From the NCBI GenBank assembly GCA_034670405.1, contig JAXDDX010000073.1, forward strand, positions 1,531,001 to 1,595,000: a stretch of 64,000 bases of DNA, given 5' to 3'. The translations under genes were made by a program, and so were the position numbers. Below, in pieces: positions 36,609 through 64,000 of the stretch (position 1 is the first letter of the stretch; every line of letters starts with the position of its first letter). Below the pieces are notes generated by a model, which saw only the letters and a program-made list of their open reading frames with translations, made no database searches and had not been told where the DNA came from. This stretch comes from Hoplostethus atlanticus. Taxonomy: Eukaryota > Chordata > Actinopteri > Trachichthyiformes > Trachichthyidae.

Positions 36609-36611
<3 letters not shown>

Positions 36612-42143: not shown

Positions 42144-42210
42144 GTCTGAAGTGGAGGTTTTTCAGACAGGTTTCATGTATTCTCTCAGGTTCATACCTGA
42201 GAGAATACAT
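42144..42210. other. Two adjacent hairpins, one with a perfect 16-bp stem
   Basis: The main hairpin is at 42175-42210: arm ATGTATTCTCTCAGGT, loop TCAT, arm ACCTGAGAGAATACAT, with no mismatch. Just upstream, 42144-42167, is a smaller hairpin with arms GTCTGAA and TTCAGAC. The stem is shorter than usual for a microRNA precursor. It could be the trace of a template-switch mutation, a cruciform-forming site, or part of an unrecognised element. Confidence 0.7.
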
Positions 42211-45200
42211 ATCTGCTGACCTGAGGGAAAATGAGATTAAAACGTTATGTTCCTTATACAGTACATTGTAACACTTCTTAACACTCTGTATGACAGATAG
42301 GTAGTATATACTCTGAGGCCTGTTGTGTTTGTCCTGCTAGTACTGAGCAAATGAATACATTCAAAGTACCTTTATCATTTGTCAGACCTTTAAAAAATGC
42401 TGCCATCAAACAACTGCTGTTCACATGAAGCTTGTCTTTGAATCTGAAATGACAGGCAGCGAAAAGGCATCTGGATGACTTCCCTGAGAGGCAGTCTGAT
42501 ATTCAGTACAGGAAGGACACAACTGATGCTTCCCACCAAAAATAGCCCTTTTGTTGTTAGTGAGTTTTTACACTTGTAATGACAATTTTTGGAAACCCTT
42601 TGAAGGTTAAATATCCATGCAGTTGATATCAATGAAAAGATATATAACTGTTCTGGCCTCCTGAACACACCGGGGCTGTCTTAAGTGACCCTCCCCCAGT
42701 GTCCTTACCTGTTGTACCCGCTGTCACCTGAAAACACTACGTTCTTTTTGGTTTTACTGTGACTGTGAATATCACCAACAAAAAAAAAACCCTCATCAAA
42801 AACATCAACTTTTAGACCTCCTATATATTTCACTTTCATCACTTTTGCTCACAGAGCAACTGTCAAGAAAAGGACTCACTCAGTCGAAAATTGAAACTGT
42901 GAATGGTAGCACTAGAGACGTGAGTGCAAGCATCTCCAGCAAAAAAAAAAATGCAATTCCAAAAAAGGCAATTCAGTAATAGACAAGGCGTGTAGCCATC
43001 CCTCTCTGTCGCGACTGGCAGTCTTCATGATAGACACAATGACGGTGATTGCATTGCTTGCATGTGTGTATTGCGGATTACAGCTCGTGTCTCGGAGCAG
43101 GTCTTGCTCGGGATGAATTTCTATGCATCTTTCATACACACACACACATACACACAAGCCGTAAACACACTGCAATGCCTGTAGGCCTCAGCGTTCCAGC
43201 TAGTGTCAGCATTTCTCAGGTATCTTACTCAAGTTTCTTGTAAATGCGATGAGAAAGGCTATTATCCCAAATATCAGCCGTGTAAACGCAGAAAATAAAA
43301 ATCTTATGGGACCACATTCATATACATTGTTGCAACATTAGGCAGCTTGGTCTGCTTGCTTCAGACATATTGCATCATAGCTGCTGTAATACATCATACA
43401 GATAGTATTGCTCTCCCAGGACGTGGGTCAGGGACTTTGGGATGGAGAAGGGGGGCACCCTCCTTTTCTATTGAGCTCTTCTATACTGTAGGTCTGTGCA
43501 CATCTCTGCCGGGAACATCATTAGAAAGTCGCTCAGGTATCCAACGGTAAAATAGTCCCGGACTGGGAAAGATTGGTTTCCAAAATTGAAAACAAGACGG
43601 AGATATTATTCTACAGCATTTTGCACTGAACAAAAAACCCCTCATATGATCCAGTTAGGCTTTACTATGATGTTGTTTCCATCGGATCCCGGAGGACTTT
43701 CTTTTTTTTTGGATTCCTGAAGGGTTTTTTTGATAAGTGGAGGGAAAGAGAAAGGAGGAGGGTAAAAAAAGAGATGGAGAGAGAGGCTACGCAGCCGTGC
43801 TATCGCAGCATGGGAAATGTATGCAAAGCTATTCATGTGCTGCAGCTCTGCTGATCCACACAGCTGCACAGGCACTCACAGACGCATCAGTCTGGAAATA
43901 CCAGATCGACATGCTTACACGAGATGTCAATTGATCGCACTCGAGGCCCGGGGATGATTACTTCAAGTGTTAATAGCGTCAGACAAGCCGGCGAGGGATA
44001 CCCCTGCACATGCACATTCATTTTGTGGTTTTTAGATTTTTATGCATCCGAGCAGAGAAATTAATAATTTAGATGTGTGGAAAAACGACACGAGAGAAGG
44101 TCTGCTGGATCCCCGGCTCTTGATTCAGCAGGAGGTCTTACAGACAGATTAGTAGCATCTTAGTGGTTTAGTTCAACACGGGCAACAGATGACTGAGTGG
44201 ACGTACCCACAGGCAGATTTCTGCTGTCATTCTCCCTTCCTTTGCAGTAGGTAATAGTTTGAGCGATGGTCTCTGATTTACTTCACCCAGTCGGTTTTAT
44301 TTATTTCCATATCTCTCCGCTGGTGCCTGGTTTGTTTTGGAGAGGGTGCTGTTACAGACTGACATTTTCCTGCGGTTTGCAGCTCCGCAGGAAACCAGAT
44401 AGAAGGCCCCCGAGATAAAACAACGCGATGAGTTATTATTGCCGTGTGTGTGTGTTGTGTGGTGTGTGTGTTTGAGTGTTTGTGTATCCCTCTGCTTGAT
44501 ACCAATCTCTCATTCATCTAGTTTAGATCTTCTTGGATCTCACATTTATCTCTATTATATCTTTCATACTCTTTTCCACCACTTGCAGCAGCCAGGGTGG
44601 GTGTCTTCTTCATTTTTTCCCCCTGTCAGTGGGCGAAAAGTGTTGTCAGCTTCACCCTATCGAAGCAGGGGTCACTACACCAAATAGACAAGGGCAACAG
44701 CCACCTTTTCATTCAACCCCCAGCAGGTTGTTGACATGACTCAGTGAGCATACAGTATGGGCTCAGCAAAAAAAAGGGAAGAGGCGCTACTTGACACGTC
44801 GTATTCAGCGGTTGGTCCCGATCTGTTCTCGAAGTGTTTAGAAAACATATTCCAGGCGTCAAAGTTTGACTGCCAAAATGATATGCCGCGCAACGGTGGG
44901 CCGTCAAAATAAAAGGTTCCCTGTGAAGTGTGGTAAAAGAAATGTGAAAAGAAAGTGTGTGTCTCTTTGTGTTGAATTGTGAAATTCACCTTTTGTTGCC
45001 TCGTGGAATAGATTTTCATACGCTTTCAATTACAACCAAAGCTTTGGCCTTGCGTTTGTCTAGCTCTAGAGACGTTACTGTCCTTGTGTTCCAAAGCGAT
45101 GCGGTATCTACCAACTATGTGCATGAGCTTCGTTATATACTGAGAAACCTGGCTCGCTTCCTGCTTCTTTGTTTCCTCCTCTCTCGCTCCACCCGTCTCT

Positions 45201-46165
45201 CTCTCTCTCTCTCGATTTACCTTTTTCTGACATAGCTCATTACTTTAGCAGGGCTGGTTAGTTAACACACACACACACCCACTGTGTGCACACGCACTCG
45301 GCTCAGTGGGCTACAGCGGCGGTGCTGTCATGCACAGGGGCCGGGTGAAGGTTTGACAGCAGACAGCGGGCTGGTGCTTAACAGACAGGCAGTGAAATGC
45401 ATGGCAGTGTAATTGCAATGAAGGGATAATTTGACATCCACTTGGTTATGATAGCTTGCAATTGTCTAGTTCTTCCACACACACACAGTGCATACAAACA
45501 CACATGCCGAGGCGATGCTCTCAGCAGGGCTACCCATGTTCCTACAGAGCTGCTTTAAGGTAAAGCCCTGTCACGGGTCGATGCTTTTTTTTCCCTTCTG
45601 TTTATTTCTCCTGTGAAAATCCACCTTGTCTAGAGGATCATAAGCATCAAGACACTTCACAGTGGAAGGAAGGGCTTAATGCCTTTGTCCCCACAGTGGT
45701 AGATAGTTGTTTTTCCAGAGAAATGTTTGAATTCTCATTTCATTGAGACTGACAGTGCAATTCATCACTTGCAGGTCTATGCGAATCCCTTCTTTAAAAC
45801 GATGCCAGTGCATTGTTGCTCAAGGACAAAAAAGCACGAGGACCACGTACCCGCCAAAAATTCCTAAACGTGTCTTTTTCCTCTCTCTTTCTGTCCACTG
45901 TTTTATTTAGCGAAATGAAGCTGTCTTGCTGGTGTCCGCGTCTCCTCGGGCTCCTGCTCTCGCTCTCGTGGATGAAGCTGAATAAAACATGACTGACATC
46001 TTGTCATCTCTGAGAGAATGGGCTGAGAATGGAAGAGGAAATGAAAAATCTCACCTCTGCGTATTTCTCTGTATGGACATAAGAGGAGAAAACACTATAG
46101 ATACACCTGCCCATATTCCAGGCTCCACCAATGTCAGTTTAGCATGGATTTAAAACTACAGTAAG
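42211..46165. other. Non-coding, no gene seen
   Basis: A GT tract lies at about 44443-44470 and a CT tract at about 45198-45214. Scattered CA runs occur at 43136-43157 and 45267-45279. No exon supported. Confidence 0.5.
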
Positions 46166-46170
46166 CACAT

Positions 46171-46473
46171 TGTTGTATAACTTCAGAGGTTGACAAAGAG
46201 TCCTCGAGACAGGAGGGAGGTACTTTCTAAACATCTACAAGGTTATTTACAACCTAGACTGAACAATATGTACTGTGTTAAAGGTTTCTGGAGTCTCTCG
46301 TGGTCGGCTCACACAAGCAATACATTCATGTAGATAGATCGCACATAAGCACCTCATTCAAGATACATGTCACATGATGATGCAGCAGTTAGGATCTCCT
46401 CACACTAGCACTAGAGATGTGTACAACACAATCATATCAGTCAGAAAGGTTAAGATACAGTGATTCTTCCACA
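46171..46473 (-). mobile_element. Solo LTR of the same family, copy B
   Basis: This 303-bp element is the reverse complement of the family at 29575-29998 but shorter. Read on the minus strand it starts TGTGGAAGAA and ends TACAACA. A perfect 5-bp direct repeat CACAT flanks it at 46166-46170 and 46474-46478, which shows an independent insertion. Aligned parts of the two copies differ at only a few per cent of positions, so the family is not ancient. No internal region is present and the copy is broken. Confidence 0.85.
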
Positions 46474-46707
46474 CACATCGTATGAGACGGTGAGTTAAAA
46501 CACCTTGTCTAACAGTAATGTTTCATGTCCTGTAATCTGTAATCTTTTGATCTTAATCCAACACTGATCTTTTCCGTTGTTGATCGTTCCCTTTTTCCCT
46601 TATTCCCTTATTCCCTCTGGCTCTCCTTTCTTCTTCTTCTTCTCCTGCTGTTGCTTTTTTTCCCCCCCATCCAGATGCATTAGACAGAAAGGCTAACCCT
46701 CACTCCT

Positions 46708-46729
46708 CCCCCAACCCCCAACCCACCCC
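46708..46729 (-). other. G-quadruplex motif (G-rich on minus strand)
   Basis: Four C runs (5, 5, 3 and 4 bases) are separated by AA, AA and A. This fits the G3+N1-7 quadruplex pattern on the minus strand. Confidence 0.7.
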
Positions 46730-47105
46730 AGTTGCCGTGGCGTGATGTATGGCTTTAACCTGGGCCTTGTGGCCCCGCCGCCATAGCTGCAATCACAGGA
46801 GCTAAAGTCATAACCCTAGGAGGAGGGAATGCACTGCCAGCATGCTGTATACACATGTACTGGGCGTCTTGTTCAGGCTACATGTAGGGTTGCTACTCTG
46901 ACACAGCAGACACAGGTTAGACCCATGTAAACACATATACATCAAATTAGGATTCTGAAAGGCTGTTAAAAAAATGGAGGCTACAATAGAGTTTGATAGC
47001 AGAAAAAAATTCAGCTATCTAAAAATGCTCAGAATCAAAGAGTAAGAACTTTTTTCTAGATTGACCATTTTGCACTGACAGTCAGCAATCATACAGGGAG
47101 AAATC

Positions 47106-47443
47106 CATGGACCACAATGCAGTGCGACTATAAGACATGTTGTGCTTTGAGGCACCACTGTCGCTTCTTCTCAACTGGAAGAACTTGCTCTCTTACTCTC
47201 ACGATGCTATCGCTAAAGATATTACTCTCTCCCCCTACACATTTAATGGGGCTTGTTGAACGGCATTGTGGGAAATGTAGCAAATCATAACTGAAGTGGA
47301 AGTAGACGAGGCAGGTTGAGGGAAAGTGGGTACACCAAAAAAAGCTAAATACAACATTTTATCACAAAGTAAGTGATGGATGTATTGCACATCACAGACT
47401 GATGTTACATGTAAGAGAATCCGTGGGTTGATTTTTCCTTTAA
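47106..47443 (-). repeat. Dispersed repeat family C, copy 2
   Basis: The reverse complement matches 34503-34866 from the TTTAAAGGAAAAA end to the GCACTGCATTGTGGTCCA end. The two copies lie about 12.2 kb apart in opposite orientation. Confidence 0.7.
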
Positions 47444-47595
47444 AAAAACAATTAAAAATCTAGATTTTCATTCTAAACTTCTTGATGCAAAACGACTGAT
47501 AAAATCGCTAACTTTGCCGATTGCTCGGCTCTGAAATGTGAATGTCTCATTTCATTTAAACTCCCTCCACCAGCTGTGCCGTTGACCTTACAAGT

Positions 47596-47619
47596 CAGTC
47601 GGAGGGATTTCTCCGACTG
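47596..47619. other. Perfect 9-bp hairpin
   Basis: Arms CAGTCGGAG and CTCCGACTG around a 6-base loop. There is no T run after it and no other sign of function. Confidence 0.6.
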
Positions 47620-49082
47620 GGACAATTAAAAGAACAGCGGGACATAGATTTCCTTTGGCTCTGATAAATGTGGTGGGGAGAATTATAATGTGTGTGACTA
47701 ATGGTATGCTCGCAGTATTTAAGCATTGTTCTCATTAAAGCGGCGCCAGCTTTGTCTTCAGCGCTCCTGAGATCCATTGTTCAGAACTGAGCTCAAATGA
47801 TTTGCCCTCCCTATTGTACATATAGATGGACATACTCACTGAGATTCCCCACATGTATAATGACTTTAACATGACTTTAACAGGATATCAGATGGATATT
47901 GCAAAGCCTCTCGGGCAGTAGAATAGAATACAGCTTCTCTAGATGATACTCAGTTCAATCACACAGATAAGAGTGCAGGATTTGATACTGCAGGCGAGTG
48001 ATTTGGTGGTCCCCGGTGGTCCCGGTGGTCCCCTCAAAATCATCCGTTAAAATCACCCATGGTTAAAGGATGGATGGTTTATTAATAATGTCACACAGTG
48101 TTATTCATCCCTGTCAGGGCTGAGATCTGCAGGGCTCAAGACCTGAGCCATACCTTAGCTCTGGCAGGCACATGACAACCTGCAGCTTTTATTAACATAT
48201 CTCTAGTCTGTCTGCCAGATTGGATCACGCTGCTATCCATCTGTCACCGCCACTCTATCAATTTGTTTTCCAGCCTGCCATTCAGCGCTGTTTGCTGTTT
48301 CCAGCACTCCAGTCAAATAGGTTTCTAATGTAACTGTCAAGATATAGTGGGCCAACAACCGATGCCCTCACCCTCCTCAAAGTATTCATTATGCCATATG
48401 GGGCTATCAAAGCCTTTCCGAAGTATCCCATTACTGCTGGGCTTGCGAGATGCCTGCATGTAATTACAAGCCCTGTGTGATCACAACCTGCAAGCGCCAA
48501 GATAAAGAGCAGAAAGCCATGTATATGTAGGATCTGAGACAGATTGCCATGGCAACCCTCAGCAGTTTTTGGAAGGAGTCAAAACTGCCTAATGAATCCC
48601 AAATCACCTTGGTAAGTAGTATTTAAAACCCATTTACACCGAAACCAATAGCACCATCTCAACACAAAAGGCACAGCCAGACCTTATGCCAAATGTTTAC
48701 AGGTGAGTTCAGTGTAGTTTTTAGTTTAATTTTAGTTGAAGTAACAATAGAAAATAACGTCAAGATGTTGTCTTTTTTCCACTTGAATATTTTTGTTTGT
48801 GCCTAGAGTAGACATAAATCTTTAACTAGTGCATGGAAAGAAGCAAGCCGACAAAGAATAAAATTCAATAAAGAAACAATAAAAATGTTTAGACAAATAG
48901 CAAATATCAATTATAGAAATAAATTGACTGTTGGAAGAGTTTGACAAACACATAGATTGGGCACAGAAAATACTACTTCTGCTACTACTACTACTACTAC
49001 TAATAATAGAAAACTGAAGGCATGAAAGGCCTTACTTGCATAGTTTTTCCTAATCCCGTTGTGTCAACATCATGAATCAGTG
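47620..49082. other. Non-coding, no gene seen
   Basis: A short CTA/TAA trinucleotide run lies at 48981-49006. GGTGGTCCC-type units repeat three times at about 48005-48032. Confidence 0.5.
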
Positions 49083-49506
49083 TACTGCGTTATCATAAGA
49101 TGTCAAACTTTGTTTTCTCAAGATCATCGCTAATTATCTTGTTATCCCAAGATAACCAAAATGGCTTAATCGAGATCAAGACTTGGTTGTCTTCTTATCT
49201 CGAGGTACCAAAAAAAAAAAAAGTTTTCTCGAGATCGCAAGTAAAGATCATTTCGATTTCAGAGTGGCTTAAGCCGTCTGTAGCCGAGCTTATTGTTTTA
49301 GAAAGTGGAAGACAATGTGAGACCACCATTGATCAACGCTTTACATTTGACTTTAATCACAAAATTGCATCGTGCCTTTCTATTATAGATAACACTCAAA
49401 TACTTGAACGGAAGGCTTCCATCTTTTGATGTCTCGAGATAATGAGATAATTAAGCTTTGATCTCAAGAAAACTCAAGGAGTCTGATGTCTTGTGATAAT
49501 GCAATA
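49083..49506. mobile_element. Foldback (MITE-like) element with long inverted arms
   Basis: The left arm, about 49083-49165, starts TACTGCGTTATCATAAGATG. The right arm ends at 49506 and, on the opposite strand, reads TATTGCATTATCACAAGACA. The two arms align over roughly 85 bases with AAGATCAT and TAATTATCTTGTTATC-type blocks in the same order. Copies of TCTCGAG(A) recur within and beside the arms (49199, 49228, 49432, 49519). The 109-codon ORF at 49100-49429 runs through one arm and the centre and resembles no known protein. This is a non-autonomous DNA element by structure; the superfamily is unknown and no clear target duplication was seen. Confidence 0.6.
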
Positions 49507-52500
49507 CGTCATTTGTGATCTCGAGATTATGGGCTTAAAAAAATATGTGCTTATGTAATAGAACAGTGATTTGAAAGGTTGAAGTGGAGGATAATCACCA
49601 GAGTCTACATAATTCATATTGACTAGCAGTGGAGTATCATCACTGTTTCGCTACCAGAGGCCTGTAGTGGGTTGTGTGCTGCTAGTAAACAGATGTTGTC
49701 AAAGAAAATCATTATTGCTTTCAAGTAGGTTTTGAACTGATTTTGAATCCTTTTCCAAGATCTGATGTTTTGCTTCAGTGGGGGTCAATGTCAGCCATGT
49801 GTTCTTAGGCTGAGGCCACTTACACACTCAAAAATAAAACAACCTGGTAGAGGCACTTGAGCATGGGACTTTAGCTGCCTTCTCAGCCATTTTACCTTGC
49901 GCTGTGCAGATGACGGCGTGGTTATGAGAGTAATTTTTCATCTGATTTGAGAATTCTCCACGCTCGGTTCAGTGCAGAGCGTCCTGTGCAGCGTTGCGAT
50001 GTCCACCTAGCCAGCAGAAACCTGTGAACCGTGCAACCGGTTCACTCACTCAGACAGCGAGGTCAGGGGAGCTTGACTCTGTTATGCCGTAACTCTAATG
50101 CGCCTTGCCTTCGGGGGGGAAATCACTCATAATAAAGATAGCGGGAAAGTATTATCTCGCTAGTTTTCGCAAAAAGGGGAGAATCGTTTCTATTATCTGT
50201 CCACATGATGATACATTTGATTAAAAGCCGTTAGATTATTTGTCAGTACTTGTGACGGCCCTGAATGATTCGTCGCCACCTTTTGTCTTTCCCCAGCTGC
50301 TTTGGCATCATTGTATCTATGTTTTTTCTCTAGTCTTCTGCCGCTCTGCCACTCTCATAAAGGATTCAACAGGATTTATGTTTCATGATGTCTTAAGTCA
50401 TTTTTTAGTAATCGTTTGCCAATGCATCTTGTTTGAACAAATGTCACTTAGGAAGTAGTTGGTGTGGATGCATGTGTGTGTACGTAGTGATGCAGAGTGT
50501 ACGCTATACACCTTTATGCAAGCAAATGATTGTTTGTTTCATCTTCCTTCGTTGATTTAGTTGTACTGTCTTTGCTATTGTCAGATGACTGTATTGTTCT
50601 ATCTTGGTACTATAGAAACTAAATAAATATTGGACCATTTCTGTTATTAATCACGCTCTAGCTCCAGAAGATACTCAGTTCAGTAGCTTCATACTAGCCA
50701 AATGACATTTTTAAATTTCTATTTTAATTCATTTGTTCTGCAGACGACCATAAATCCCCCAGTCTCTCCTCTTGACAGCCATTGGTATTCTGCAGCATCA
50801 GGATGGGGCTGAAATTTAAGTACATTCTGTCATCACAGAGTTGTCATTTATCTCAATAAAAAAAGAAAGTGTGCCTTGAGAGTAGTGCATCTAAATTGCA
50901 GCACACAACAAACTGGCTCTGATGAGGCAGGGATATTTTCAGCAGCTGGCATATGGAAGAGATCGAGGCTGAGACAAACTGAGCCGGTGCAGATGGAGCT
51001 TGTTGAGTTGTTCACCGCCGCCGTGCATTCTGCTCAGTCTCCCGGGAACGTGATTTGAGAGGAGCTTGGCATGTCATAAAAATTTGTCTGAAATACTACA
51101 ATCGTCACCCTTAGTAATCCAGTCTTGATCATGGGGGTTTTAGTTGAGGGTGTGGAGAATGGGTGAAAAAGAAAAGCGTGGAAATTTGGGATTAAATAAG
51201 TGTTTGTTTGTTTTTAATAAATTAATTGAATTGATGATGATTGTGCATGATTTGGTAATGAAGACCTTATATGAAACTATATCTATATGAAATCCAGGTG
51301 TAAATGCACCCCTCCAAACCTCTGGAGGTGGTCATTTGGCCTGATAACAACAAAGTGTAAATGCAAGTGCACACAAATCATGGCTGCTTGAATAGTAACA
51401 TCAATCAAAATCGAGTCAAAAATGGATTGTGGATGGGAAACAAGCAAGACGAGGTGCACACTGTCAGTTTTAAATATTACGAGAGGACGTGACAATCTGC
51501 CTTTTGGCAAGGGGAAGAGAAATTGAATTTCACTGGGTGTGCTGGCAACGCATTTTGACGTCAGGTCTAAATAAAGTCCAGCTACATCAGATCTAGACAC
51601 GATCTGGATACAAGATGCATGTCAGCGCCAGATGTAACATGGGCCTCTGAGGTCTGGAGGTTTGTGGTTGTAGGCCTTACATTTCATGAGTCCGAGATAA
51701 TCGTCATGGTTTCAATTTGCCGTTGAAGACAATGAGGCAAAACAGGAAAAATGGGTTGGTTCTGTTACCATAATTGTGCTAAAATGACCTGTCAGGGAGG
51801 CAGGTAGTCCCACTGGAGAGCACAGTCAAGTAGTTCTATTCAGGTACGACTTGTGCAACACAACAATATAATATCCAGAGCATACAGTTTTAAAAAATTC
51901 ACAGTTGCATCTACAGAAACGGTGTTCTCTGAGCTGCATGCTGCCTTGGAGTGGCATAAATGAGGTATGAGCCCCTTTACAGCCCATCTGCCTCGATATA
52001 AGAGGTCAGCCAAATAATGGCCAAATAATCAGACCTTTTTTATTTCAAGGTGGCCATAATGACATTTCAATGTGTCGGGGGTTAATGTCATTTACACGCT
52101 TTTGAGGTTTTTCATGAAGAGAATTGTGATGTCAGCTTGTAAAACCACATATGTAGTACAAAGGCTTAAAATGCCATCAGGAATTGAAATCACCAAAGTT
52201 GTATATCTCTCGTTTGAGTTGTTTATTTGTTACTTGAACATTAAAGCTGAGCGTGCAGGAGAAGCATCCCAGCTGGTTTTTGCCATTCATATTGTTTTGC
52301 GCTTCACATTTGTTGCGTTTACTTTGACTTTTGGTGTCCTTTTGATGACATAATGATACTGGCACCAAATACAATTCCCGGGAAGAAGACTATGCTGCAG
52401 AGAGCACCAGATCATCCCTCTGATCCCCATAATCTGTCCAAATCCTCGGGAACAATGCCTCTCCATTATGGAAATAGAAAACATGAGCATTACAAGTTTT

Positions 52501-52903
52501 ATCCCTTGGGCTCCCTGCTCGCCAGTGTTATTTGCAAGACCACAGTTGTTGCGTGGACCACTGTTTTCATCGGCGCTAACAGTTTCCATATTTATATTAC
52601 ATTGTGTGTTTATGGGCACCTAATGAAACACATGTTGTAAAAGCACAGTCGCCCCTGAGGTTCCGTTCTGATGACGCCGGCTCCTTCCGTAATGGACTGC
52701 TCCTGTAGGTGGGCCAGTAAATTAATGGCTGTAAAATGTCTCATCTCCGATAATGCAAGCTATAATAAAAGCCCTGTTGCAGTGGGAGAGAAACGAGAAT
52801 CAAATGGAGTCATAGTATGTTCACCTTCCTCCCACTCTCTCTTTTCCTATCTTTTCACCATCTCCGCTCATCCAGTCCTCCCTAGGACCCTGCACCCCTG
52901 CAG

Positions 52904-52941
52904 CCCCCACACACCCGTCTAACCCCCACCCCCATCCCCCC
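52904..52941 (-). other. G-quadruplex motif (G-rich on minus strand)
   Basis: Five C runs of 5, 3, 5, 5 and 6 bases with spacers of 5, 6, 1 and 2 bases. Confidence 0.7.
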
Positions 52942-53050
52942 GAACATTTCTCATGCCATTTTGTCTTTTGCAATCCACTTCATTTGGAGGCTTACAAATT
53001 CTATTAGGGTGATCTTGTGGTGCGTTGCACGGCTGCTGCAAAGAGTGCGA

Positions 53051-53084
53051 GGGTGGGCTGCCTTGGGGGGGTTGGGTGGGGGGG
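53051..53084 (+). other. G-quadruplex motif (G-rich on plus strand)
   Basis: G runs of 3, 3, 7, 3 and 7 bases with spacers T, CTGCCTT, TT and T. Confidence 0.75.
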
Positions 53085-56000
53085 TGAACAAGCCCCTAAT
53101 ACTAATAAACGAGCTCGACTTTGCCTCCCCTGCTCTGCAAGTTGTGAGGGAGAGGGGGATGAGTAATTGGAAAATATCCCTAGCCTCCCGTTCCAGAGAG
53201 ATCACCCCCCACCCCCTCCACCATGTCCTCCCTCATGGCTCAACCAGCCTCACCCTCCAGCTACAGTCACATGAAATATATGGTTCCTGTTTATTTTGTT
53301 GTAAAATATATTATAGACACACGATTAATCTAATTTCAGACTGCTCCTGTTATGTGGAGGGGGTTAAAGGAACAAAGGGTTACCAAAGGGACAGAAGATA
53401 TTTTTTGCGGTGCAATCTGCAGAGTGGGATCGGGGGAGGAAGGTGGAAAGGTTCAGGGGCGGTTGGTTGCAGTCTGGGACTTCGGCTGCATGCAGAGGAC
53501 ACTTGCCCTGGGCTAATGGGCATAATGTCACTCAGAACCCAGCACACATCCAGATAGCTATGGAAATCAAGAAACAAGGAAGTGGTGCATTTGTGAAAAC
53601 AACTCGTACCGTACGTCCTCCTGCTATATTTACAGTGCAAGGTAAAGAAATAAGAAACTAAGCAGCATACGCAGTGATCCGTGTCCAAATAATAATTTAA
53701 CACACCAGGTTGTCTGTAGCTTTAATACGAAACATTTCATTGTGCATGAAGTTGACATTGTAATGGCAGAAATACTGCAACACCCCCCCTACCTACTCTG
53801 ACAGCCCCTCTGAAGACCCCCCATGACTTCATTATGTCGAAAGTGAAACCACATGCTTCTATTGGGCCTGTTGTACTTCACAAAAGTAACACATGTCGTC
53901 CTCTTTTATCTCAGCTGGCTGAACTTGATGATGAACTTCAGCTCATGAATTAGTGCTGAACACAGTTTCTACGATTAAGGTATAGATGCTCTTCAAAGAT
54001 GTGCACTAGAGAATACCATATTTTGAGGGGGGGGGGCATGTCATTGGCAACGTCATTAGATTAAAACATGTTTTTGTAGGTCAGCTATCACTTTCAATAT
54101 CCTTGATGTCATTCTAGGTACTTATAAATGGTGTTGTATTTTGGTTCCACACTGCTCAAGGTAAACATGGCGGAGTGGCAGCTATGTGTTATTCTCTCTT
54201 TCTATCTCCTTGTTTTTCCCTTTTTTTTTTACATTTCATATGAGGTTATATTTGGAAGCCGTTTTGGTTTATTTGCACAGATGACAGAGACGAAGTGCAT
54301 CAACTTATCTATTGAAATAAAGAATACACAAGGAAATGATCTCCTCTTTGAGCTGAGACGTGCAGTGAAAGGTCATCCTCAGCATTTCAAATGAGGGGAG
54401 GTTCAAAGAGAGATCACGCCACGGCATGTATTTAAAACTTTCAACAGTTCAGTTAATGTTTTTTTATTACTATTCATAAAACTACCAAAACTCAAAGACC
54501 TGAGAGGATGGGTCAGTTCGTTTTGTAGTCTTATATTGGGGTCAGAATTTTAAATCTTAATGTTTTTTCTCCCAGACCTCACTGAAGTATCTTTATGAAT
54601 GAAATTTCCCCAAATGCATCGAAGGTATCTAAATGTTTCCATGATCAAGCAATGTTTCTCTAGCTCTTGAAACACGCATGAGGTGCAATTGTAAAGAAAT
54701 ATTTAGTCATGCTTGTTCTTTTTCGCTTGAATATCCTTCTTATATCTGCATCACTGCAACTTCCTCCCGCAATAGTTTAAACATTTTACCTTGAGGTGAT
54801 CATCACAAATAATCAGTGAACATCTTGAAATATACTTTCCTTCCTCGTGCCTGTGATGGGAAATACGGGTTCCATCCGAAAAGGACATTTACTGTAGAAA
54901 TAGTCAAGTGTGATTGATAGTGTGAACCAGTGGAAGTACCTTGAGCAAAGAGGATTTTGACAGGTCCCATACATTAAGACCAGAGCGGCTTTTCTGTCCA
55001 CGCTGTCATTATGACAGGTACGAACCTCAGTCGTATTGATCTGGTATAATCAATCATATTAATTCACATTTGTGCCCTAAGGACAATTTCATCTTCCCCA
55101 GCAAAAACCATCTCCCATAATTCAACGGTATGTTCTGCGCAATCATTTTGAGTGGACTTGAAATGTTCTGTCACATGTGTTTACTGTGAACGAAGGGATC
55201 AAAACCAACAGTGTCTTTCCCCTTTGTCCCTCTGGTCCCCGTTCTTTCCTCAACCCGACAGAGAAAACAGTGGCAACACTTTGGCACTATTCATAAGTTA
55301 GGTCAACTTTTGAACAAAGGGGGCACAATTTAGCAATTAATATGCTAAGTCGTCGTGTATTAACATGCACTTCAAGGGCGTTAACCACTTATTAGGCCTT
55401 CAGGGACGAGTCATTAATGATGAAAATTTGACCTCCCGTGCACGTGTGTTTGAGCCATTGAAGTCCCTACTATGCACTTGATGAATAGCATTAACAAATC
55501 ATATTGTGCAGAGAGATTATAGCAGGGAAAGAATAGAGTGCGACTGGTAGATAGTGCACCATCTAACTCGCAGCTACAGAGGAGAATACCTAAGTGAGCA
55601 CTATTGTTCTGCATTGAGTGCAAATAATAAGGGCTATCATAGGGCTTGTAGGCAGACCTGTAAAGGGAAGAGAATGAGCTTGTTCTTGTATTGAGAGTCT
55701 CTTTGTTGCCATAAGTGCCGAGCCAACAGAAGCAATTGAGATTGCATTATGTTCATAGTGTCATCACATCCCACTTGAGCTTTATTCCTGACAATAACTA
55801 CAGATAATAACAATAAGGTTGAATGTAAACAAAAGGCAAAAGATAATAACAGACAGGTATGAGATAAAATGAAGAATGAAAGCGTCTATTTGTGTACCTG
55901 ATTCTCTAATTGCGCACCATCTGCTGTGGGAGTGACATTGAGGAGGGGAGAAAAAAAAAAAGGGAATGAAGCTTTGCGTTCTCACTTGGCCAATCAAAGA

Positions 56001-58499
56001 GCGCTATAGTAAACAAGTACTGTAGAATGAGGCACACGTTTCTGTTTCTGTGTGGTTGGAGTGGTTGGTTGGCTAGTGTGGTGATCTCTCCACAAGGTTG
56101 TAACCTACTCGAGGCTCTTTTCGGGCTTGCGTGGTACGTGGAAAATACTGAGAGGAAAAAAAATATCAGACAATCTTTCACAAAACGCTGATAAGATTGT
56201 TGGTTTATTGGGAAACGTTGAGGTAAGTGTACAGGTATTTTCTAACACCTCGCTGCTTCTTTCCTCACTCTCTCTCTTCAGTTTATTTTCCCCTACCAAT
56301 TGCTCTTTTCCATTGTAGAAAGCCCAGTGGCTGACCTTTACCTTGGCAGCAAATGGAGGTCAAAGGATCATTATTATAGCTGCTTGGAAAAGCTACATCT
56401 GGAGGGGATTAGCTTTGACCTCTTTGTTGTATTGAGAGCGCTGTGAAGGCTGGAAGCCAGTGCTTTCATTCCTCACGATCAGCGATACTGTTAGCATGTC
56501 CGGATAGATGGCCTGATAGGTTCATCTTCAAAATCTATTCGAAATGCTTGTGCTCATTTATTTCGCTCTGTGCCCAGAATACCAGACATCTGAGTCATAC
56601 AGACTTTTTTAGCAATTGATCTCGGTTAAAACCTTCAGACCCAGAGCGTTCCACGACAATGAATGAAGCTGTGGAGGCAGAGAAAGTTAGGGCGAAGGTG
56701 TAATTAAAGCTGATTATGGCAAGGCAGAGGGGAGGGTAGAGCAGCACATTTGTCTTCCCCTCCTAATGAGTGGAGGGCGGGAGAGCTGAATTAGCTGCTT
56801 CGCTGTCGTCTCTCCATTGCCGTGCCACTTTGTCAAAAGGACGATCCTCCTGGAAGATGAGACGGGGTCAAGTGTGTGTGTGTGTCCGGGCATTATTCTT
56901 ACAGACCAGTCGGGTCCCTCTTCCACCGGGCTCTGGGAATAGAGGCGCTCCAGCAGGCTTCGAGCCACGCCATTCAGACACTGCATCATTAAACCAGCCT
57001 ACCCCAGGTCCCCTATTCACAAAGGACCAGTCCATAGTGCCGCACAGGAACAATCAGCGACACTTATCATAACATAAAGTGTGACGCGATCGTTTTTCAC
57101 TCCTTCTTTTATTTCGATGTGTTATGAGGCTGTAGTAATACAGTAGTGGCAACCTGTTATTAAGCCTCCGTCTACCTTGCCCAGTAATTTGTAAAATCAC
57201 TATTGATGACCACTATTGAGGCTACTCTCACACAAATACAAATTCACACTATTATGTTAGTTATGTAATGTAATACACGCTTTTGAGGCCGTTTCCTCTT
57301 CCCAAGGGCACGAGGGGACCTAGAAATCAATACCGTCGGTGTCATGCTGGTATCATCCGTGACATCTGCTACAATGCATCCACTCTGTACGGATGATGAT
57401 GAGGCCCACACTGCATTCACTGAGAAAAAAATGAGGGACAGTTAATTCATAGTATTCAACGATGCAAGTGGCAGAGCTAGAGAAAAAAATAAATCAAGAC
57501 TTATTGAAATAGCACACTTAACATTTGACATGTATGTGCATAGCGTGGTGTGATTTGCCTCTGGATAACACACAATATTCAAAAGACACTCTTGAGTCGT
57601 TCTGCAGGATGACCTCTCTGCTGCAAGCGAAACCGCCTTGCTTTAACATAACATCGTGTGAATATATTCATTCCTGGCAAATGATGAATTCTATAGATTT
57701 TGAATAAATGCAGTCTTGCATAATGATCTCTTTCTCTCTGGGCGATGCAATATCAATACCATAAATTACTCGGCTGTGACGAATTAGTAGCTGACGAAAT
57801 CCTAACTTCATGGTTATTGGTTAGCCCAAGCAGAAAAACATTTTAGTAAACATCTCAGTGTCTGCTGTCTGGTTTTGTTTTGTTTCTTAGATTTATTATT
57901 TAAGTGTACAAGGCGCGGCAGAAGCATCACACAATTAACCACCAAAACTCCTAGATGTCATAGATGATGCAAAGACACTGTTTTCATTACGACCAGCGAG
58001 TCTTTTAACTAGGTCTTAAAACTGTGATGTTCATTCGTTAATTAGAGGCTGCGTGTATTGTCTAATTCGCCCTCTTAGGGCTGCAGCCAGTGAAATGCTT
58101 TATTCACTGTTTTATTATTCATTGCTGCTGTAAGGTCAGGCTTCCGTTTCAGTGTTGGCTGACAGGGGAGATGAGTTAGTTGGCCCCCAGGTCTCCCCGA
58201 AGCAAAAGCTTATAGTCAGTTTCAAATGATAATCTGACACCTGAGCCAGTGTACACACAAAGGGGGAGCTTTTCAGTAATATGCTATGTGGACTTTCACA
58301 GCCACAAGACCTTGATGCATTGGAAACTGCAGTACATGGTGCTATGAACCACTGAGATGTTTATGGGGGCCATCTCTTCTAGCTGTGATTGACATGAATG
58401 ATTCCCTTTAAAACTGGACTTCTTCTAGCTCAGCTGTTTATAAAATAATTCCTCACCCAGGTTTTAGTGCAGTAGCCTTGCTATAAGCAGTTTTGGGCG

Positions 58500-58566
58500 T
58501 AGTGTAACGACTTACTATTTCAAATGTCAGTGAACATGTCACAGTTATCAAGAAGTCGTTACTTTT
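58500..58566. repeat. Short inverted repeat
   Basis: GTAACGACTT and AAGTCGTTAC lie about 45 bases apart. The arms are perfect over ten bases. It may belong with the repeat 270 bases downstream. Confidence 0.35.
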
Positions 58567-58832
58567 GTTATCACTCCCTCTAAATAGCACGATGAAGATT
58601 CACGTTCCTTGTCATTAGTCGCCCTGCTCTCTCACATTAAGCTAGTTTAGATGAGAAATGTCAGAAAAGTTTACTTTCTGAGGGTGGAAGTGTGTTCCCA
58701 CTGCTTTTATTTCATTGAGCAAACGGGTGACAAGGACATTGGACAGACACCTACGCCATTATACCGGTTTATCTTGATTTATTTTACAGATTTTTGGAGG
58801 TAAGAGAGAAAGCGCCAACCGTCAAATTTCGG

Positions 58833-58993
58833 AAAGTGTAACGTAATAGGTGTAATGCAATATACAGTAAGGAGTTGTGCTACGACTTTTTGCTCCCAGG
58901 GAGTAACTGTTAATGGGTAAAGTAATGGCATTACTTTTGAGACGAGTAAGGAGTAATGCATTGGTTGGTCGAGTAAAGAGCCAAACACTGGCG
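58833..58993 (-). mobile_element. Decayed fish short repeat of the CAGTGTTTGG...AGTAATGCATTACT type
   Basis: Read on the minus strand it starts CGCCAGTGTTTGGCTC and continues with AATGCATTACTCCTTACT, AAAAGTAATGCCATTACTTT and GTTACTCCC blocks. Repeated TAATGCATTAC/AGTAATG palindromic blocks after a CAGTGTTGGG-like start mark a very common fish repeat of DNA-transposon type. It is heavily diverged. Confidence 0.5.
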
Positions 58994-59269
58994 ATAAGGT
59001 TGACTGACACAACGCCACAAAGTCCCTTGTGCACTTCATCATTTAATGTGTTTTGTTATACTCCATGTAGTGGTAAATAAAATGCTGGGTAAAAGCTCCG
59101 GTTGTAAATTACCATAAGGCAATAACAACAACACGAACACTAACGAATAATATTTTTAGAAAAGCATTAATTTACGCTTTTACTCTCTTGAAGGACCCTA
59201 TCTTCATAATACTTATATCAACTTGTTACTACTTGGGGTTCTATGATGACTATGAATTCATGCCATTCA

Positions 59270-59910
59270 GGTTTATGTCAGCCTATAAAGCTGGGTAAAC
59301 TTTGTTCCGCAGATAAAACGGTGGGTAAAGTGAGTTTAGGTGGGTTGCAGCTCCTCTATATTTCTGCTTCTACCTTTTTTCCTCGTGTACCAACTGTCCA
59401 GAGGCTGCACTTACTTGCGCCGAGGAGGAAGCGTGCAGCCTGTAAAGCGGCACTGCGGCATCGCCGTATCACTGCGCCCCGGTCCCCCTTCTCCGGGATC
59501 CTGTAGCTCGGATCTGGGGAGAGGAGGAGGAGATACCCTATGGTTTTCCTTTGCGGGATTTATTTTGTCAGCTCAATTCCTTCATATGTTTTATCTTTTT
59601 TAGTGACCGAAGGCCTGCAACTTGTCCGGACGGTCCCTCCCCACTTACAAGGGTTTGCATTTCTTGGTTTTGCATGACGTGTCTTGGAGCACAAAAAAAA
59701 AAAAAAAAAAGAGGCTCGCTTTTGTTGTGTGTCTTATAGTGGAAAATGAAGCTTGGAGAGCCGGAGCAGGAGGCAGTGCCAGTCCGCTGCTGCTGTTGTG
59801 GGCTGGACTGGATTACAGAGCCTGAGATATCTACTGACAGCACAGGCAGACAAAAAGAGACTGTGAACGAGGACAGAGGAAAGACTCTTTTACAGGGCTA
59901 GAAAAGCCAG
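59270..59910 (+). promoter_or_regulatory. Candidate CpG-rich promoter or non-coding first exon of auts2
   Basis: Around 59410-59520 there are about eleven CpGs in little over 100 bases, in a window where CpG is otherwise sparse. The patch is purine-rich downstream (GAGGAGGAGGAG) and is followed by a T-rich tract ending TTAG at 59603, which is acceptor-like. It lies about 2.9 kb upstream of the auts2 start codon on the same strand. No TATA box or initiator stands out and no clear splice donor could be chosen, so the transcription start is unknown. It could instead be an unrelated GC patch. Confidence 0.35.
59692..59710. repeat. Poly(A) tract
   Basis: Nineteen A in a row inside the CpG-rich candidate promoter region. 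Confidence 0.9.
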
Positions 59911-61875
59911 GGCGAGTGTGAGAATATAGTTTTTTATTATTATTATATTTTAAAAAACCCGATTTTAACAGCTATTTGTATTGTATATGTGTGTCATTAG
60001 ATGAGTGCTGGCACGGGGCATCAGGTTAAAAGGATAGGTAGTGCTGGAAAAAAAGGCTTTGGACCGTTAATATAGTAAAGGTAGATTTTCCTTTTGAGTT
60101 ATTACAATGCAAAACAGCTGCACGGAGGGAATATTTTGGATGGTTGCTGCATAGATAGAGGTTGGCTTGTTGGATATGCCTTTGTTATGCATCCCTTTGA
60201 GAATGGTCAATTTTTGGAAATGTTTGTAAATGTGCATGTTTGACACTTTACAGGATGTAGAGTATTTGTAGACTACATTGCAGAATCTAGATCAGCTATA
60301 TTACATGGCAACCTGTCTCCAAGGAGATAATGCAAAGTTGAAGATGGTGGTTTACTATGACAGATTGGTTTTGGTTTGTCTGGTGATGCAAAAAAAAAAA
60401 AAGGTGTGTTCATCTGTCTTTGAAATGTCCACCAGCATTTGGAGGTAGGTTATTAAGTAAGGCTTTAGCAATTTCTGTAGTTTGTTGATTCACTTCTCTT
60501 CCAAATAGGATACCATTTGTATGATGTCATGGAAGAGAATTGATATTCTGGACACATACAGAAGCCATATGTGTTTTAGACTACAATGCCAGAGTGACTT
60601 TCAGTGGCTCTAGGCCTAGAGTGTAGGCTATGCCTTGAGAATGATTCAGAATATGATTGCAAGCTGTTGAATGTTGCATCCCAATATTGTGTTGACTAAT
60701 GTTATAACATAGAAGGGCAACCAAATACCTATGGTGTCAGACAGTGAAAGTATCACCTGCTGAGCCCTATGATTAAATACAGGAGGAGATTGTCTGAGGG
60801 TCCTGTCTTCTTTCTTGGTTTCGCAGAATTCTCATCAGAAAATCTCAAGGACCGCGCACCATTCAGTTAGGCTGGTATTCATTCATGAAAGAGAGTGAAG
60901 CATTCTAGTTTTTGATCTCTGAGATGACAAATGAGTGAAATGAAATGAAAGTTGAGATACAAGAGTTGTAAATGATGATCTGATGAATGGGCTAAATTAG
61001 ATGTGTGTGCATGCTATGGAAAGGAGTCGGCAAGCCAAACCATTTTATTCAAAAAGAGCTTGCATATGACTAACCTGTGAGTTAATGGGTGATAGTTGAT
61101 TTTTGTGCATTGTTGGGAATTAATCAAATAATTAAACTTAGATACCCAAGATGATACACCATGCGTAATCAGTGAAACTCAATTTAATGTGTCATTATGC
61201 CACATCTGTGCAACTGAAATGCACTTTAATATGATTTAATTATTCAAATTAATGCAATTATCTGACAAATATGAGTAGGGAAAGTGAGAGGGGAGATTGT
61301 TTCGACTTCAAATAGTTTATAATAAACTGTTAATTCAATTAAGGCTGTATACTTAGATATACTCAGGCTCAGAAGTGTAATTATAGTAGTAGGACCAATG
61401 TTGAAATATGTTTCTGATGCACTGTCACACTTTGCACTTGCACAAAACGTATTTACTATATTTATTTATTTTACTTAGTTAGACCTTATTTGAAATGTAT
61501 TAAAGACCACAAGAACAACGTTAGGTTTATGTTGAGAGGCTCTAGACACCAAGTTACAAAGAGTAAGAATTCCTATAGTAATTAATTGCGTTAATTGTAA
61601 TTAATAACAGTGTAGGGTACAAGCTTGGCAAAAGCTTCAGAGACACCAGTAAAGGAGCACTTACAACACATAATCATCTCAGCCAAGTGCCTGATGACTT
61701 GGCAAAGTAAGAAAACACAATCTAGTCCGCAGATGAGTCTGTGGCCACCCTATTGAAACGTTCATCTTGCATTATGTAGAATGGCAACAACCTCCTGTAT
61801 AATATCCACCTCCTTTGGGAAATGTCTCGTTGACTCTATGTAAACTTGCTGAGTGAACATGTTGCAAATGCATGT
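59911..61875. other. AT-rich non-coding stretch, possibly 5' UTR intron
   Basis: Unusually free of recognised repeats for nearly 2 kb. From about 61080 to 61270 it is dense in TAAT/ATTA motifs. If the upstream CpG patch is a first exon, this stretch is an intron between it and the exon carrying the start codon. No exon is visible in it. Confidence 0.45.
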
Positions 61876-61907
61876 TCTCTCTCTCTCTCTCTCTCTCCGT
61901 GTTGTAG
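61876..61907 (+). promoter_or_regulatory. Candidate splice acceptor (CT tract then GTTGTAG)
   Basis: A (CT)n pyrimidine tract of about 21 bases is followed by CCGTGTTGTAG, then GAGGGCGAG. This fits polypyrimidine tract, NTAG and exon start. It would begin the exon that carries the auts2 start codon, leaving 453 bases of 5' UTR in that exon. A random CT microsatellite followed by TAG is the alternative. Confidence 0.45.
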
Positions 61908-61960
61908 GAGGGCGAGTTTGCTGACCGAGGGTGTGAGGAGCAGATTCCTTGAGAAGAAAG

Positions 61961-62029
61961 ATGTTGCTTCACCTGCACACCTCACCGTGGCGGGACGTGC
62001 TCACTGACCAGACATTTTCTTTAACTTGA
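61961..62029 (+). CDS. Upstream ORF 1 in the auts2 5' leader (22 codons)
   Basis: The ATG has A at -3 and so a fair start context. It encodes MLLHLHTSPWRDVLTDQTFS then LT and a stop. It counts as an upstream ORF only if transcription begins upstream of it, which the sequence does not prove. The peptide has no recognisable feature. Confidence 0.3.
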   Translation: MLLHLHTSPWRDVLTDQTFSLT

Positions 62030-62140
62030 AAACCTCTTAGTGGAGTTGACAGCTTGGTTACAACGTCTTTAATAGTTTACACGTCTGTCATTGGATTTGC
62101 TGGACTGCCTTTTGGGATCTTTGCTTGGTTCTTTGAATCA

Positions 62141-62572
62141 ATGCAGTTTTGCATTTTCTCCACAAGGTTTCATCTATTGGATATTACATGTTTACCTTGG
62201 ATCTTATACATTGATTTTGACGTTCACTTGGATATTGCGGAAAAATTCTCCTTTGGAGTTCCTACACAAGTAGGGGTTCAGCAGTGCCAGTGGTTGGCCC
62301 TTGAAGAGCTTGATTCTCTCTGTAAGAGGAGGATTTATCTGGATGTTTTCTCTGAAGGACATGGATGGCCCTCGATCCAGTGGCCTCCGCAAAAAGAGGA
62401 AGTCGAGGTCGGCGAGGAATCGGGAGCGGAGGTCAAACGGGATAAGGACCAGCCATGTGAGGGGCTCCGTCTTTCGCTTCTCCTCAGATTCAGAGCGGGA
62501 GGGGAACAGGGAGCCCACATCATCCCGTCCCAGACCCCCGCGAAGAAAGCGAAAGGAGTCTACTTCTGCTGA
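62141..62572 (+). CDS. Upstream ORF 2 overlapping the auts2 start out of frame
   Basis: The ATG at 62141 is in a weak context (T at -3, C at +4). It opens 143 codons that run through the auts2 start at 62361 in another frame and stop at 62570-62572. The part after 62361 is rich in charged residues simply because it reads the AUTS2 basic-region DNA one frame off, so its protein-like look is a shadow. It may act as an overlapping upstream ORF that lowers AUTS2 translation. Confidence 0.25.
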
Positions 62573-62630
62573 AGAGGACATCATCGATGGCTTTTCTATC
62601 ACTGGGTTCATAACGCTGGAGGCGTTGGAG
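62361..62630 (+). CDS. auts2: AUTS2, first coding exon (partial gene)
   Basis: This 90-codon exon matches the N terminus of AUTS2, a nuclear protein that joins a PRC1-type Polycomb complex with CK2 and p300 to activate neuronal genes; it also has a reported cytoplasmic role in actin control. The start [20 protein letters not shown] is followed by RERR (about residues 11-24), a basic nuclear-localisation-type region. Next come serine-rich SSDSEREG, a second basic block [20 protein letters not shown] (56-75), then [15 protein letters not shown]. Human AUTS2 has the near-identical block [13 protein letters not shown]. The paralogue FBRSL1 has ESSSQEEEVIDGF and lacks the MDGP start, so AUTS2 is preferred. 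The start has a strong context (GACATGG). An in-frame ATG at 62343 would add six residues in a weak context. The exon ends in phase 0 at GAG followed by GTGAGT. The remaining exons lie beyond the window. Confidence 0.93.
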
Positions 62631-64000
62631 GTGAGTGCTGAACCTCAGGGATGCTTACTGCCCTCCACCTGGGTTGAGCTGTACATGCGCAAGTGTCTCA
62701 AACGTTTACTTCCTGTTTCGCAATCAGTGGGGTTTGGAAATCTCTTAACGCCGTGTAAAGATGTGTTTATTATTGTTTACAGCTCAGTGCATCTGTCACT
62801 GGGCTGGCCCAGCGTTTGGCTCCTGCCTGTATATTTGGCTGTTGTGCGAGCTGGAGTTCAACAGATGTGGCTTTAAATGTAGCGCTGCAGCCAGAGATTG
62901 CTATCTATGTCACTGTGAGGCTGTTGTTGTGTGCGCTGCTCTGGATTTGTTTTCATAAGAGTGTGCCAGCAAAGGCTTACGCTAGATCAGGGATGTGCAA
63001 CTATGGTAGTAGTGGCTGTTGAGTGTTTGTACACTTACTAAGGAAGAACAACTTGATCCATGTATAAAGAGAGGTTATTTGAAGTGGAAGTAATATATCA
63101 TGCACATGCACATCCATTTCCTCTGAATGCACACAGGGCATGGGCTGCCTTCCAACAATATAGCTGTGACTTATGACTTACTGTACTGTTTACATATGAC
63201 ACATCTCCATATACCAATAACTTACATACTAATATTAGATACTGAACAGCAGCCTTTCGCCACAGTTAATCTGGTATCAGATATTGCAGAATACATCAGT
63301 CGACCTCTGAGGAGTTTTTCTCTGTGGAGTTTGACCTGACCTTGTTTCAACAGGTTCTGATCTACCTGATTTATATCTCCCTATGTGACTCAGATGTCAC
63401 TTTGCAAAAACTCCAGTTCCACCCATCATGTATTTTCTCATTGTCACTTGGAATTACTCTATTCAACAGTCTCGGGCCCTTGTGCTAGTGCTTCCTTTCT
63501 CCCTCCTTTTGTTTTTGCGTGACCTTTTTGCCATTGTTCTTTTTATCGACATCGTCTGCTCCAGTCTCTTGAATCATTGGTATTCAGGGTTTGAGTATCT
63601 AGTCAAATGACAGCAGTGTTTCAATTGAGTAGCTCTGGAGTTTGACAGTGCAAGGTAAAATAAAAGTATATGAAAAGAAATTAAGAAAAAAAGATACCTT
63701 GAACTTTTATCAAATTAATTTTCATTGTGCAACTTCATTGGTTGCCTTTCCCATTAACCTTCATCTTTCTCTCCGTTCAGCATTCTACATTTCAGTTTCT
63801 TAATCTTCATCTTCTGAATCTGAGTCTGATTGCCCTTTTAATGAGAATCATCTTCACTAGGCTCCATCAGCTTTATATTTGCATGCAATGCCACTTTTTG
63901 CGCCACTCTTCTGTAGCGCTGGGGGAAATGATCCTTTAAGTATCATATTAGGACAATTTCTCTGTGGATATTGTGTCAATATATTGACACAGTACTGTGA
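62631..64000 (+). other. Start of auts2 intron 1
   Basis: It opens with the strong donor GTGAGT at 62631. In mammals AUTS2 intron 1 is very long, and nothing here looks like a second exon (known AUTS2 exon 2 continues with a KDVALKPQERVEK-type sequence, which is absent). There are short ORFs only and no recognised repeat. Confidence 0.8.

What the first reader, a model, noticed from the sequence alone, without database searches (positions are those of the whole stretch)
62361..62630. AUTS2 first coding exon at the edge of a 60-kb gene-free flank
The N-terminal block [13 protein letters not shown] and the strong GTGAGT donor identify the only host coding exon in 64 kb. The whole upstream flank lacks another exon I can support, which makes it a candidate regulatory domain of auts2, a gene whose non-coding region is known in mammals to hold neural enhancers.
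Basis: partly seen in the sequence, partly recalled or inferred. Interest (0 to 1): 0.7.

Follow-up and report, generated by a model that had tools for sequence, protein, structure and literature searches.

The report
Fish auts2a first coding exon
This is an ordinary exon carrying the start of the protein of auts2a, the fish version of the human brain-development gene AUTS2, and the long coding-free stretch before it is probably mostly an intron of the same gene rather than empty DNA between genes.

Summary
Window 62361-62630 encodes 90 residues (MDGP...[13 protein letters not shown]...LEALE) and ends in phase 0 at a GTGAGT donor. In the window's own 633-Mb genome the rest of the gene lies on the same contig and strand: exon 3 starts 65.4 kb downstream with a phase-0 acceptor, two further matches follow in order, and the Auts2-domain exons lie 276-278 kb downstream. 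The two paralogous N-terminal exons sit on other contigs with their own Auts2 domains. No fourth Auts2-domain locus was found, as expected where auts2b is lost. med13 and ints2 lie upstream. So this is auts2a.

One correction: in zebrafish and medaka this is exon 2, preceded by a non-coding exon 1. A strong acceptor here puts exon 2 at 61908-62630. The most promoter-like CpG-rich site between ints2 and exon 2 lies 101 kb upstream, outside the window, so the 'flank' is most likely intron 1. That site is not proof, and a medaka figure argues against so long an intron.

No enhancer was tested. Ordinary finding; low interest.

The parts
62361..62630 (+). Coding part of auts2a exon 2 (first coding exon), 90 codons, N-terminus with basic stretches and the [13 protein letters not shown] block
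   Evidence: Translation; paralogous exons in own genome; collinear downstream auts2a exons on the same contig and strand
62631..62636 (+). Splice donor GTGAGT, phase 0; the rest of the window (to 64000) is then intron 2
   Evidence: Rank 2 of 3895 GTs in the window by a recalled matrix; exon 3 match at C73:1659070 with a phase-0 acceptor; the paralogous exons end at the same codon boundary, GAG|GTAAAC and GAG|GTAAGG
61908..62360 (+). Inferred 5'UTR part of exon 2; one place only in the genome search
   Evidence: Acceptor ...TCTCTCTCCGTGTTGTAG|G ranks 22 of 4181 AGs and is the best between 61700 and the ATG; CDS starts in exon 2 in zebrafish and medaka and a medaka guide is labelled 'Exon 2, 5' UTR'; 1 match in the genome, itself. 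That medaka guide aligns 15 of 19 columns at 62039-62057, but at least 3 places elsewhere in the window score higher, so weak
62343..62345 (+). In-frame upstream ATG (would add MFSLKD); poorer start context than 62361
   Evidence: Sequence and frame check
62141..62572 (+). Upstream ORF of 143 codons in another frame, overlapping the CDS; weak start context, probably incidental
   Evidence: contained in the stop-to-stop ORF 62030-62572
1..61907 (+). Stretch with no supported coding exon; inferred intron 1 of auts2a (last 62 kb of a 122.5-kb coding-free interval after ints2)
   Evidence: Codon scan, Pfam on 10 selected stretches, Rfam, upstream genes med13 and ints2; promoter-like CpG site outside the window

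Best explanation
The feature is exon 2 of auts2a, the teleost orthologue of AUTS2, in a fish in which no auts2b-type Auts2 domain was found. It works as an ordinary exon: a transcript begins at a non-coding exon 1 upstream, splices into 61908, translation starts at 62361, and the exon is joined through the donor at 62631 to exon 3, 65.4 kb downstream. It supplies the basic N-terminus of the full-length isoform. Shown: the coding sequence, both paralogues, the collinear downstream exons and the phase-0 junction. Inferred from sequence and from zebrafish and medaka papers: the acceptor at 61908 (about 0.85). Inferred with less certainty (about 0.6): exon 1 and its promoter lie near C73:1492.2 kb, 101 kb upstream of exon 2, which would make the whole 62-kb 'flank' intron 1.
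For: Own-genome search finds three N-terminal exons and Auts2-domain (PF15336) matches on exactly the same three contigs, 12 of 12 matches at E 0.001 or better: C73 + strand 276-278 kb downstream; C55, 242-247 kb from its N-exon (fbrsl1-like); C86, about 9 kb in all (fbrs-like). A recalled human AUTS2 peptide gives 3 matches in the genome, 3 of 3 on C73, in order and on the + strand (E 3.7e-5, 4.9e-9 and, weakly, 0.006). Exon 3 acceptor CCAG|AAC GAC continues ...LEALE|NDMTIKPQERK in phase 0. One Auts2-domain exon is 90% identical to recalled human AUTS2 on C73, against 56% (C55) and 50% (C86). The N-terminal exon scores 251 against recalled human AUTS2, 145 against recalled FBRSL1. med13 and ints2 upstream; med13 is a published teleost auts2 neighbour. 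Non-coding exon 1A in zebrafish, with a TATA-bearing promoter. A CpG-undepleted stretch covers med13 exon 1 and another ends 207 bp before the ints2 start codon (2 of 2 genes that could be checked); at that threshold one such segment lies between ints2 and auts2a, at 1491351-1492300, and none in the window.
Against: No RNA evidence. The CpG criterion is not specific: of 9 segments in 264 kb, 5 are at no known 5' end, 4 of them within the span of med13; at a slightly looser threshold (o/e 0.9, 20 CpGs) the interval holds two more, 1494251-1494750 and, inside the window, 44751-45250. Part of the site (1491601-1491841) is a dispersed repeat. The candidate exon-1 donors there are unremarkable (top 1.1% and 0.55% of GTs). 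In medaka, a 338,136-bp deletion of introns 2-7 is called 90% of the gene (PMC12063280), which leaves about 37 kb for intron 1 and all the rest; a 101-kb intron 1 here would be out of line. Zebrafish also has start sites at exon 2 itself (exon 2L and TSS3). The N-terminal exon alone separates the family poorly: the C86 exon also scores higher against recalled human AUTS2 (220) than FBRSL1 (195.5), so the naming rests on linkage.
Confidence: 0.87

Rival explanations
1. Exon 1 and the promoter lie inside the window (within about 30-37 kb of exon 2, as the medaka figure suggests), so only the right part of the window is intron 1 and the left part is intergenic flank.
For: Medaka deletion of 338 kb of introns 2-7 is called 90% of the gene. 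CpG-richer spots exist in the window (14401-15000, 37301-38250, 44751-45300, 49851-50350); 44751-45250 reaches o/e 0.91 with 22 CpGs.
Against: None of these reaches o/e 0.95 with 18 or more CpGs in 500 bp, unlike the stretches at the 5' ends of med13 and ints2. The 28.7-29.2 kb spot overlaps a weak LINE 3'-end match.
Confidence: 0.3
2. The exon is itself the first exon, as in human and mouse: the promoter lies just upstream of 62361 and the whole 62 kb is 5' flank.
For: In human and mouse the CDS starts in exon 1. Zebrafish has start sites at exon 2. Local CpG o/e 0.70 at 62351-62850.
Against: A strong acceptor at 61908, rank 22 of 4181; zebrafish and medaka both have the CDS start in exon 2; no strong CpG site at exon 2.
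Confidence: 0.1
3. The exon belongs to fbrsl1, fbrs or auts2b.
For: All three paralogous exons share the [13 protein letters not shown] block.
Against: fbrsl1-like and fbrs-like exons lie on other contigs with their own Auts2-domain exons; the recalled AUTS2 peptide matches are on C73 only; zebrafish auts2b is held to have lost the 5' part corresponding to exons 1A-6.
Confidence: 0.02
4. The 62 kb is a regulatory domain rich in auts2a brain enhancers.
For: In humans, 23 of 40 candidate sequences, chosen mainly between exon 1 and intron 5 of AUTS2, acted as enhancers in zebrafish, 10 of them in brain (PMC3547868, passages). A large intron of a developmental gene is a likely place for enhancers.
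Against: Nothing in the window was tested: no conservation, chromatin or reporter data. The DNA before the fish first coding exon corresponds to the upstream side of human exon 1, not to the human introns tested (inference from exon order).
Confidence: 0.35

Closest known systems
auts2a of zebrafish and medaka (PMC5555464, PMC9454499)
   Same: Long isoform with CDS start in exon 2 after a non-coding first exon (there shown, here inferred); very long introns; med13 nearby; auts2b absent in Acanthomorphata such as medaka
   Different: Gene from exon 2 to near the end of the coding sequence here is about 280 kb, against 560 kb for the whole zebrafish locus; exon 1 position here only inferred
Human and mouse AUTS2
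   Same: Same N-terminal motif and phase-0 junction after LEALE (human sequence recalled)
   Different: In mammals the CDS starts in exon 1; here a strong acceptor stands 453 nt before the ATG
FBRSL1 / fbrsl1 and FBRS / fbrs
   Same: Paralogous N-terminal exon ending at the same codon boundary; Auts2 domain
   Different: Separate loci in this genome (C55, C86); lower similarity to AUTS2 in the Auts2 domain

Membership tests
AUTS2 (auts2a) | N-terminal exon with MDGP start and RPPRRKR(R/K)[13 protein letters not shown] block (motif recalled) | tested here: met
   Translation; alignment with recalled human AUTS2, 59 of 90 identical
AUTS2 (auts2a) | Phase-0 junction to an exon coding xD(V/M)..KPQER (recalled) | tested here: met
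   Exon 3 match at C73:1659070, NDMTIKPQERK, phase 0
AUTS2 (auts2a) | Auts2 domain (PF15336) in the same gene | tested here: met
   C73:1869809-1872030, + strand, 4 matches over the Pfam cut-off; same gene by order and strand, not by transcript
AUTS2 (auts2a) | Closer to AUTS2 than to FBRSL1/FBRS | tested here: met
   human sequences recalled, not fetched; no FBRS reference compared; the C86 exon also leans to AUTS2 in the N-terminus
AUTS2 (auts2a) | Teleost auts2 synteny (med13 nearby) | tested here: met
   med13 exon 1 at C73:1377759, MED13 matches at 1435819 and 1438942, then ints2; published neighbour list, which does not by itself separate auts2a from auts2b
AUTS2 (auts2a) | HX repeat and PPPY motif (exon 9) | not tested
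   The stretch where they should lie was not searched for them
AUTS2 (auts2a) | Transcript using the 62631 donor | not testable with these tools
   No RNA data
fbrsl1 / fbrs | Linkage to an fbrsl1- or fbrs-type Auts2 domain | tested here: not met
   Those domains lie on C55 and C86

The most novel reading that the evidence does not exclude
auts2a in this fish has a 5'UTR intron of about 101 kb whose last 62 kb fill this window, so that the gene's main promoter and its start codon are separated by a large coding-free block that could hold auts2a enhancers, while the 453-nt leader with its upstream ATGs and overlapping 143-codon ORF tunes translation.
Probability: 0.15. Interest if true: 0.35.

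Novelty: already known. Interest (0 to 1): 0.15.

Why it matters
It fixes the identity and the likely extent of the exon, and turns the '60-kb gene-free flank' into a probable intron of the same gene, so any enhancer search should treat it as intragenic and test for a promoter about 101 kb upstream. AUTS2 is a human neurodevelopmental disease gene, and fish models depend on correct 5' gene models.

Tried and rejected
Pfam and PDB searches with the 90-aa exon gave nothing useful: Pfam 0 families; one chance PDB hit, E 0.52. A literature search for the peptide [12 protein letters not shown] found 0 papers. The medaka exon-2 5'UTR guide (PMC12063280) and the zebrafish 'translational' morpholino (PMC3547868) were aligned to the window to test the 5'UTR call. 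The guide's best UTR match is at 62039-62057, but at least 3 places elsewhere score higher and at least 2 equal it (top 6 rows seen). The morpholino's own best UTR match is at another place, 62145. The joint match is reached or beaten by 64 of 25586 positions (strict scoring; 36 of 25586 loose; the site's own positions included). This was not used as proof. The CpG spot at 28.7-29.2 kb was set aside as exon 1 because a weak LINE 3'-end match overlaps it. The TMEM240 hit on window 28287-28748 was taken as chance. Copy-number searches of whole window stretches never ran, so repeats in the window are known only from comparison with the 200 kb upstream, from Rfam and from tandem-repeat search. The auts2b remnant exon was not searched for. 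Passages of PMC8503961 were seen and not used.

Full report
Observation. Window 62361-62630 translates to 90 residues without a stop, [14 protein letters not shown]...[36 protein letters not shown], followed by GTGAGT. The donor ranks 2 of 3895 GTs of the window under a recalled splice matrix, and the exon's locus has the strongest codon-usage signal of the window: 22.1 in the exon's own frame, 27.0 and 16.3 in other frames of the same locus, against 12.4 for the best segment elsewhere.

Identity. The window lies at C73:1531001-1595000 of an unnamed 632.8-Mb genome. The exon peptide finds itself and two paralogues: C86:1080881-1081183 (60% identity) and C55:2116474-2116704, minus strand (45%). 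All three end at the same codon boundary before a GT. The Pfam Auts2 domain gives 12 matches in the genome at E 0.001 or better, on these same three contigs only. On C73 they lie at 1869809-1872030 on the + strand, 276-278 kb downstream of the exon. On C55 they lie 242-247 kb from that contig's N-terminal exon; the zebrafish fbrsl1 region is 580 kb, so also a long gene, and the C55 exon matches recalled human FBRSL1 better than AUTS2 (218 against 173). On C86 the N-terminal exon to the end of the domain matches spans about 9 kb; I call it fbrs by elimination. No match points to a fourth gene, which fits the published loss of auts2b in Acanthomorphata (PMC9454499, part 1 of 2 of the Results and the figure legends read); a short remnant would not have been seen.

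The rest of the gene. A recalled human AUTS2 peptide for exons 2-6 has three matches in the genome at E 1 or better, 3 of 3 on C73, + strand, in order: 1659070 (E 3.7e-5), 1710484 (4.9e-9) and 1861937 (0.006). The first lies in an exon that begins, after a good acceptor (TTTTTGCCTCTCCAG), with AAC GAC ATG at 1659067, so the junction reads LEALE|NDMTIKPQERK in phase 0, against LEALE|KDVALKPQERV in recalled human AUTS2. One Auts2-domain exon is 90% identical to recalled human AUTS2 on C73, 56% on C55 and 50% on C86; similarity to recalled AUTS2 runs to residue 1230 at about C73:1873.5 kb. The N-terminal exon scores 251 against recalled human AUTS2 and 145 against recalled FBRSL1; but the C86 exon too scores higher with AUTS2 (220) than with FBRSL1 (195.5), so the N-terminus alone would not settle the name. 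Linkage and order do. The human sequences are recalled, not fetched.

Exon number and true start. In zebrafish and medaka the auts2a CDS starts in exon 2 (PMC9454499); in zebrafish exon 1A is non-coding, with a TATA-bearing promoter and start sites within 58 nt (PMC5555464, four Results sections and passages read). In this window the best acceptor between 61700 and the ATG opens an exon at 61908 (rank 22 of 4181 AGs), giving a 723-nt exon 2 with 453 nt of 5'UTR; that stretch has one match in the genome, itself. An in-frame ATG at 62343 has a poor context. A 143-codon ORF at 62141-62572 overlaps the CDS in another frame, also with a weak start context; I regard it as incidental.

The flank. The 200 kb to the left of the window were fetched. 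med13 (exon 1 at C73:1377759 by a recalled human peptide; solved-structure match E 8.2e-58 at 1435819; Pfam MID_MedPIWI at 1438942) and ints2 (from 1450857, by a recalled human peptide; Pfam matches to 1469373; one further coding-like segment, without a Pfam match, ends at 1470825) lie there on the same strand. From 1470825 to the start codon at 1593361 there are 122.5 kb in which the best coding-like segment outside the exon's own locus is a DDE_3 transposase fragment at 1525612 (score 15.4; next 13.2). The window holds the right half of this interval. Ten stretches of the window were given to Pfam; none passed a curated cut-off. Short exons below the noise of the codon scan cannot be excluded. 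Rfam finds only LINE 3' ends in the window.

Where is exon 1? A CpG-undepleted stretch (500-bp windows with o/e 0.95 or more and 18 or more CpGs) covers med13 exon 1, and another ends 207 bp before the ints2 start codon; these are the two genes where this could be checked. rnft1 could not be judged because of a 5-kb run of N nearby. Of 9 such segments in 264 kb (two of them adjoining at med13), 5 are at no known 5' end, 4 of these within the span of med13, so the sign is not specific. In the ints2-auts2a interval there is one, 1491351-1492300, and none in the window; at o/e 0.9 and 20 CpGs two more appear, 1494251-1494750 and window 44751-45250. Part of the site, 1491601-1491841, matches a dispersed repeat; of 1106 candidates 40 were scored, and none but the site itself reaches beyond that part. 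A 500-bp window just right of the repeat (from 1491851) is still matched in both CpG measures by none of the windows more than 1 kb away (4882 windows in all). A TATA-like TTATATG at 1492188 and donor-like sites at 1492317 and 1492481 stand there (top 1.1% and 0.55% of GTs); zebrafish exon 1A uses two donors 132 nt apart, here they would be 164 nt apart. I therefore place exon 1 there with about 0.6 probability. Against this, medaka authors call a 338-kb deletion of introns 2-7 90% of the gene (PMC12063280, two sections and passages read), which leaves about 37 kb for intron 1 and everything else.

Regulation. The claim that this is a regulatory domain was not tested. In humans 23 of 40 AUTS2 candidate sequences were active in zebrafish, 10 in brain (PMC3547868, passages read). 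That makes enhancers here plausible, but not shown.

Verdict. A correctly recognised, ordinary exon of a known gene, with its number, its 5' extent and the nature of the flank corrected.

Noticed in passing
window 24381-24435 (+) and 28832-28884 (-): 3' ends of UnaL2-type LINEs (Rfam RF00436; the second is below the gathering score).
   Followed up: partly
L020:3211-3316 (C73:1494211-1494316): A tRNA-like stretch directly followed by a UnaL2-like tail (below gathering score), the layout of a tRNA-derived SINE with a LINE tail.
   Followed up: no
L023:4612-4887 (-), C73:1525612: Fragment of a DDE_3 transposase, just left of the window.
   Followed up: no
L002:1501-1803 and C86:1080881-1089675: fbrs-like gene whose N-terminal exon to Auts2-domain end is only about 9 kb, against about 278 kb for auts2a and 247 kb for the fbrsl1-like gene by the same measure.
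   Followed up: partly
window 20007-20342: 336-bp tandem array built of TCAT-type units.
   Followed up: no
window 11033-11291, 34523-34890, 47028-47402: Dispersed repeats also present in the 200 kb upstream at 74-90% identity.
   Followed up: no
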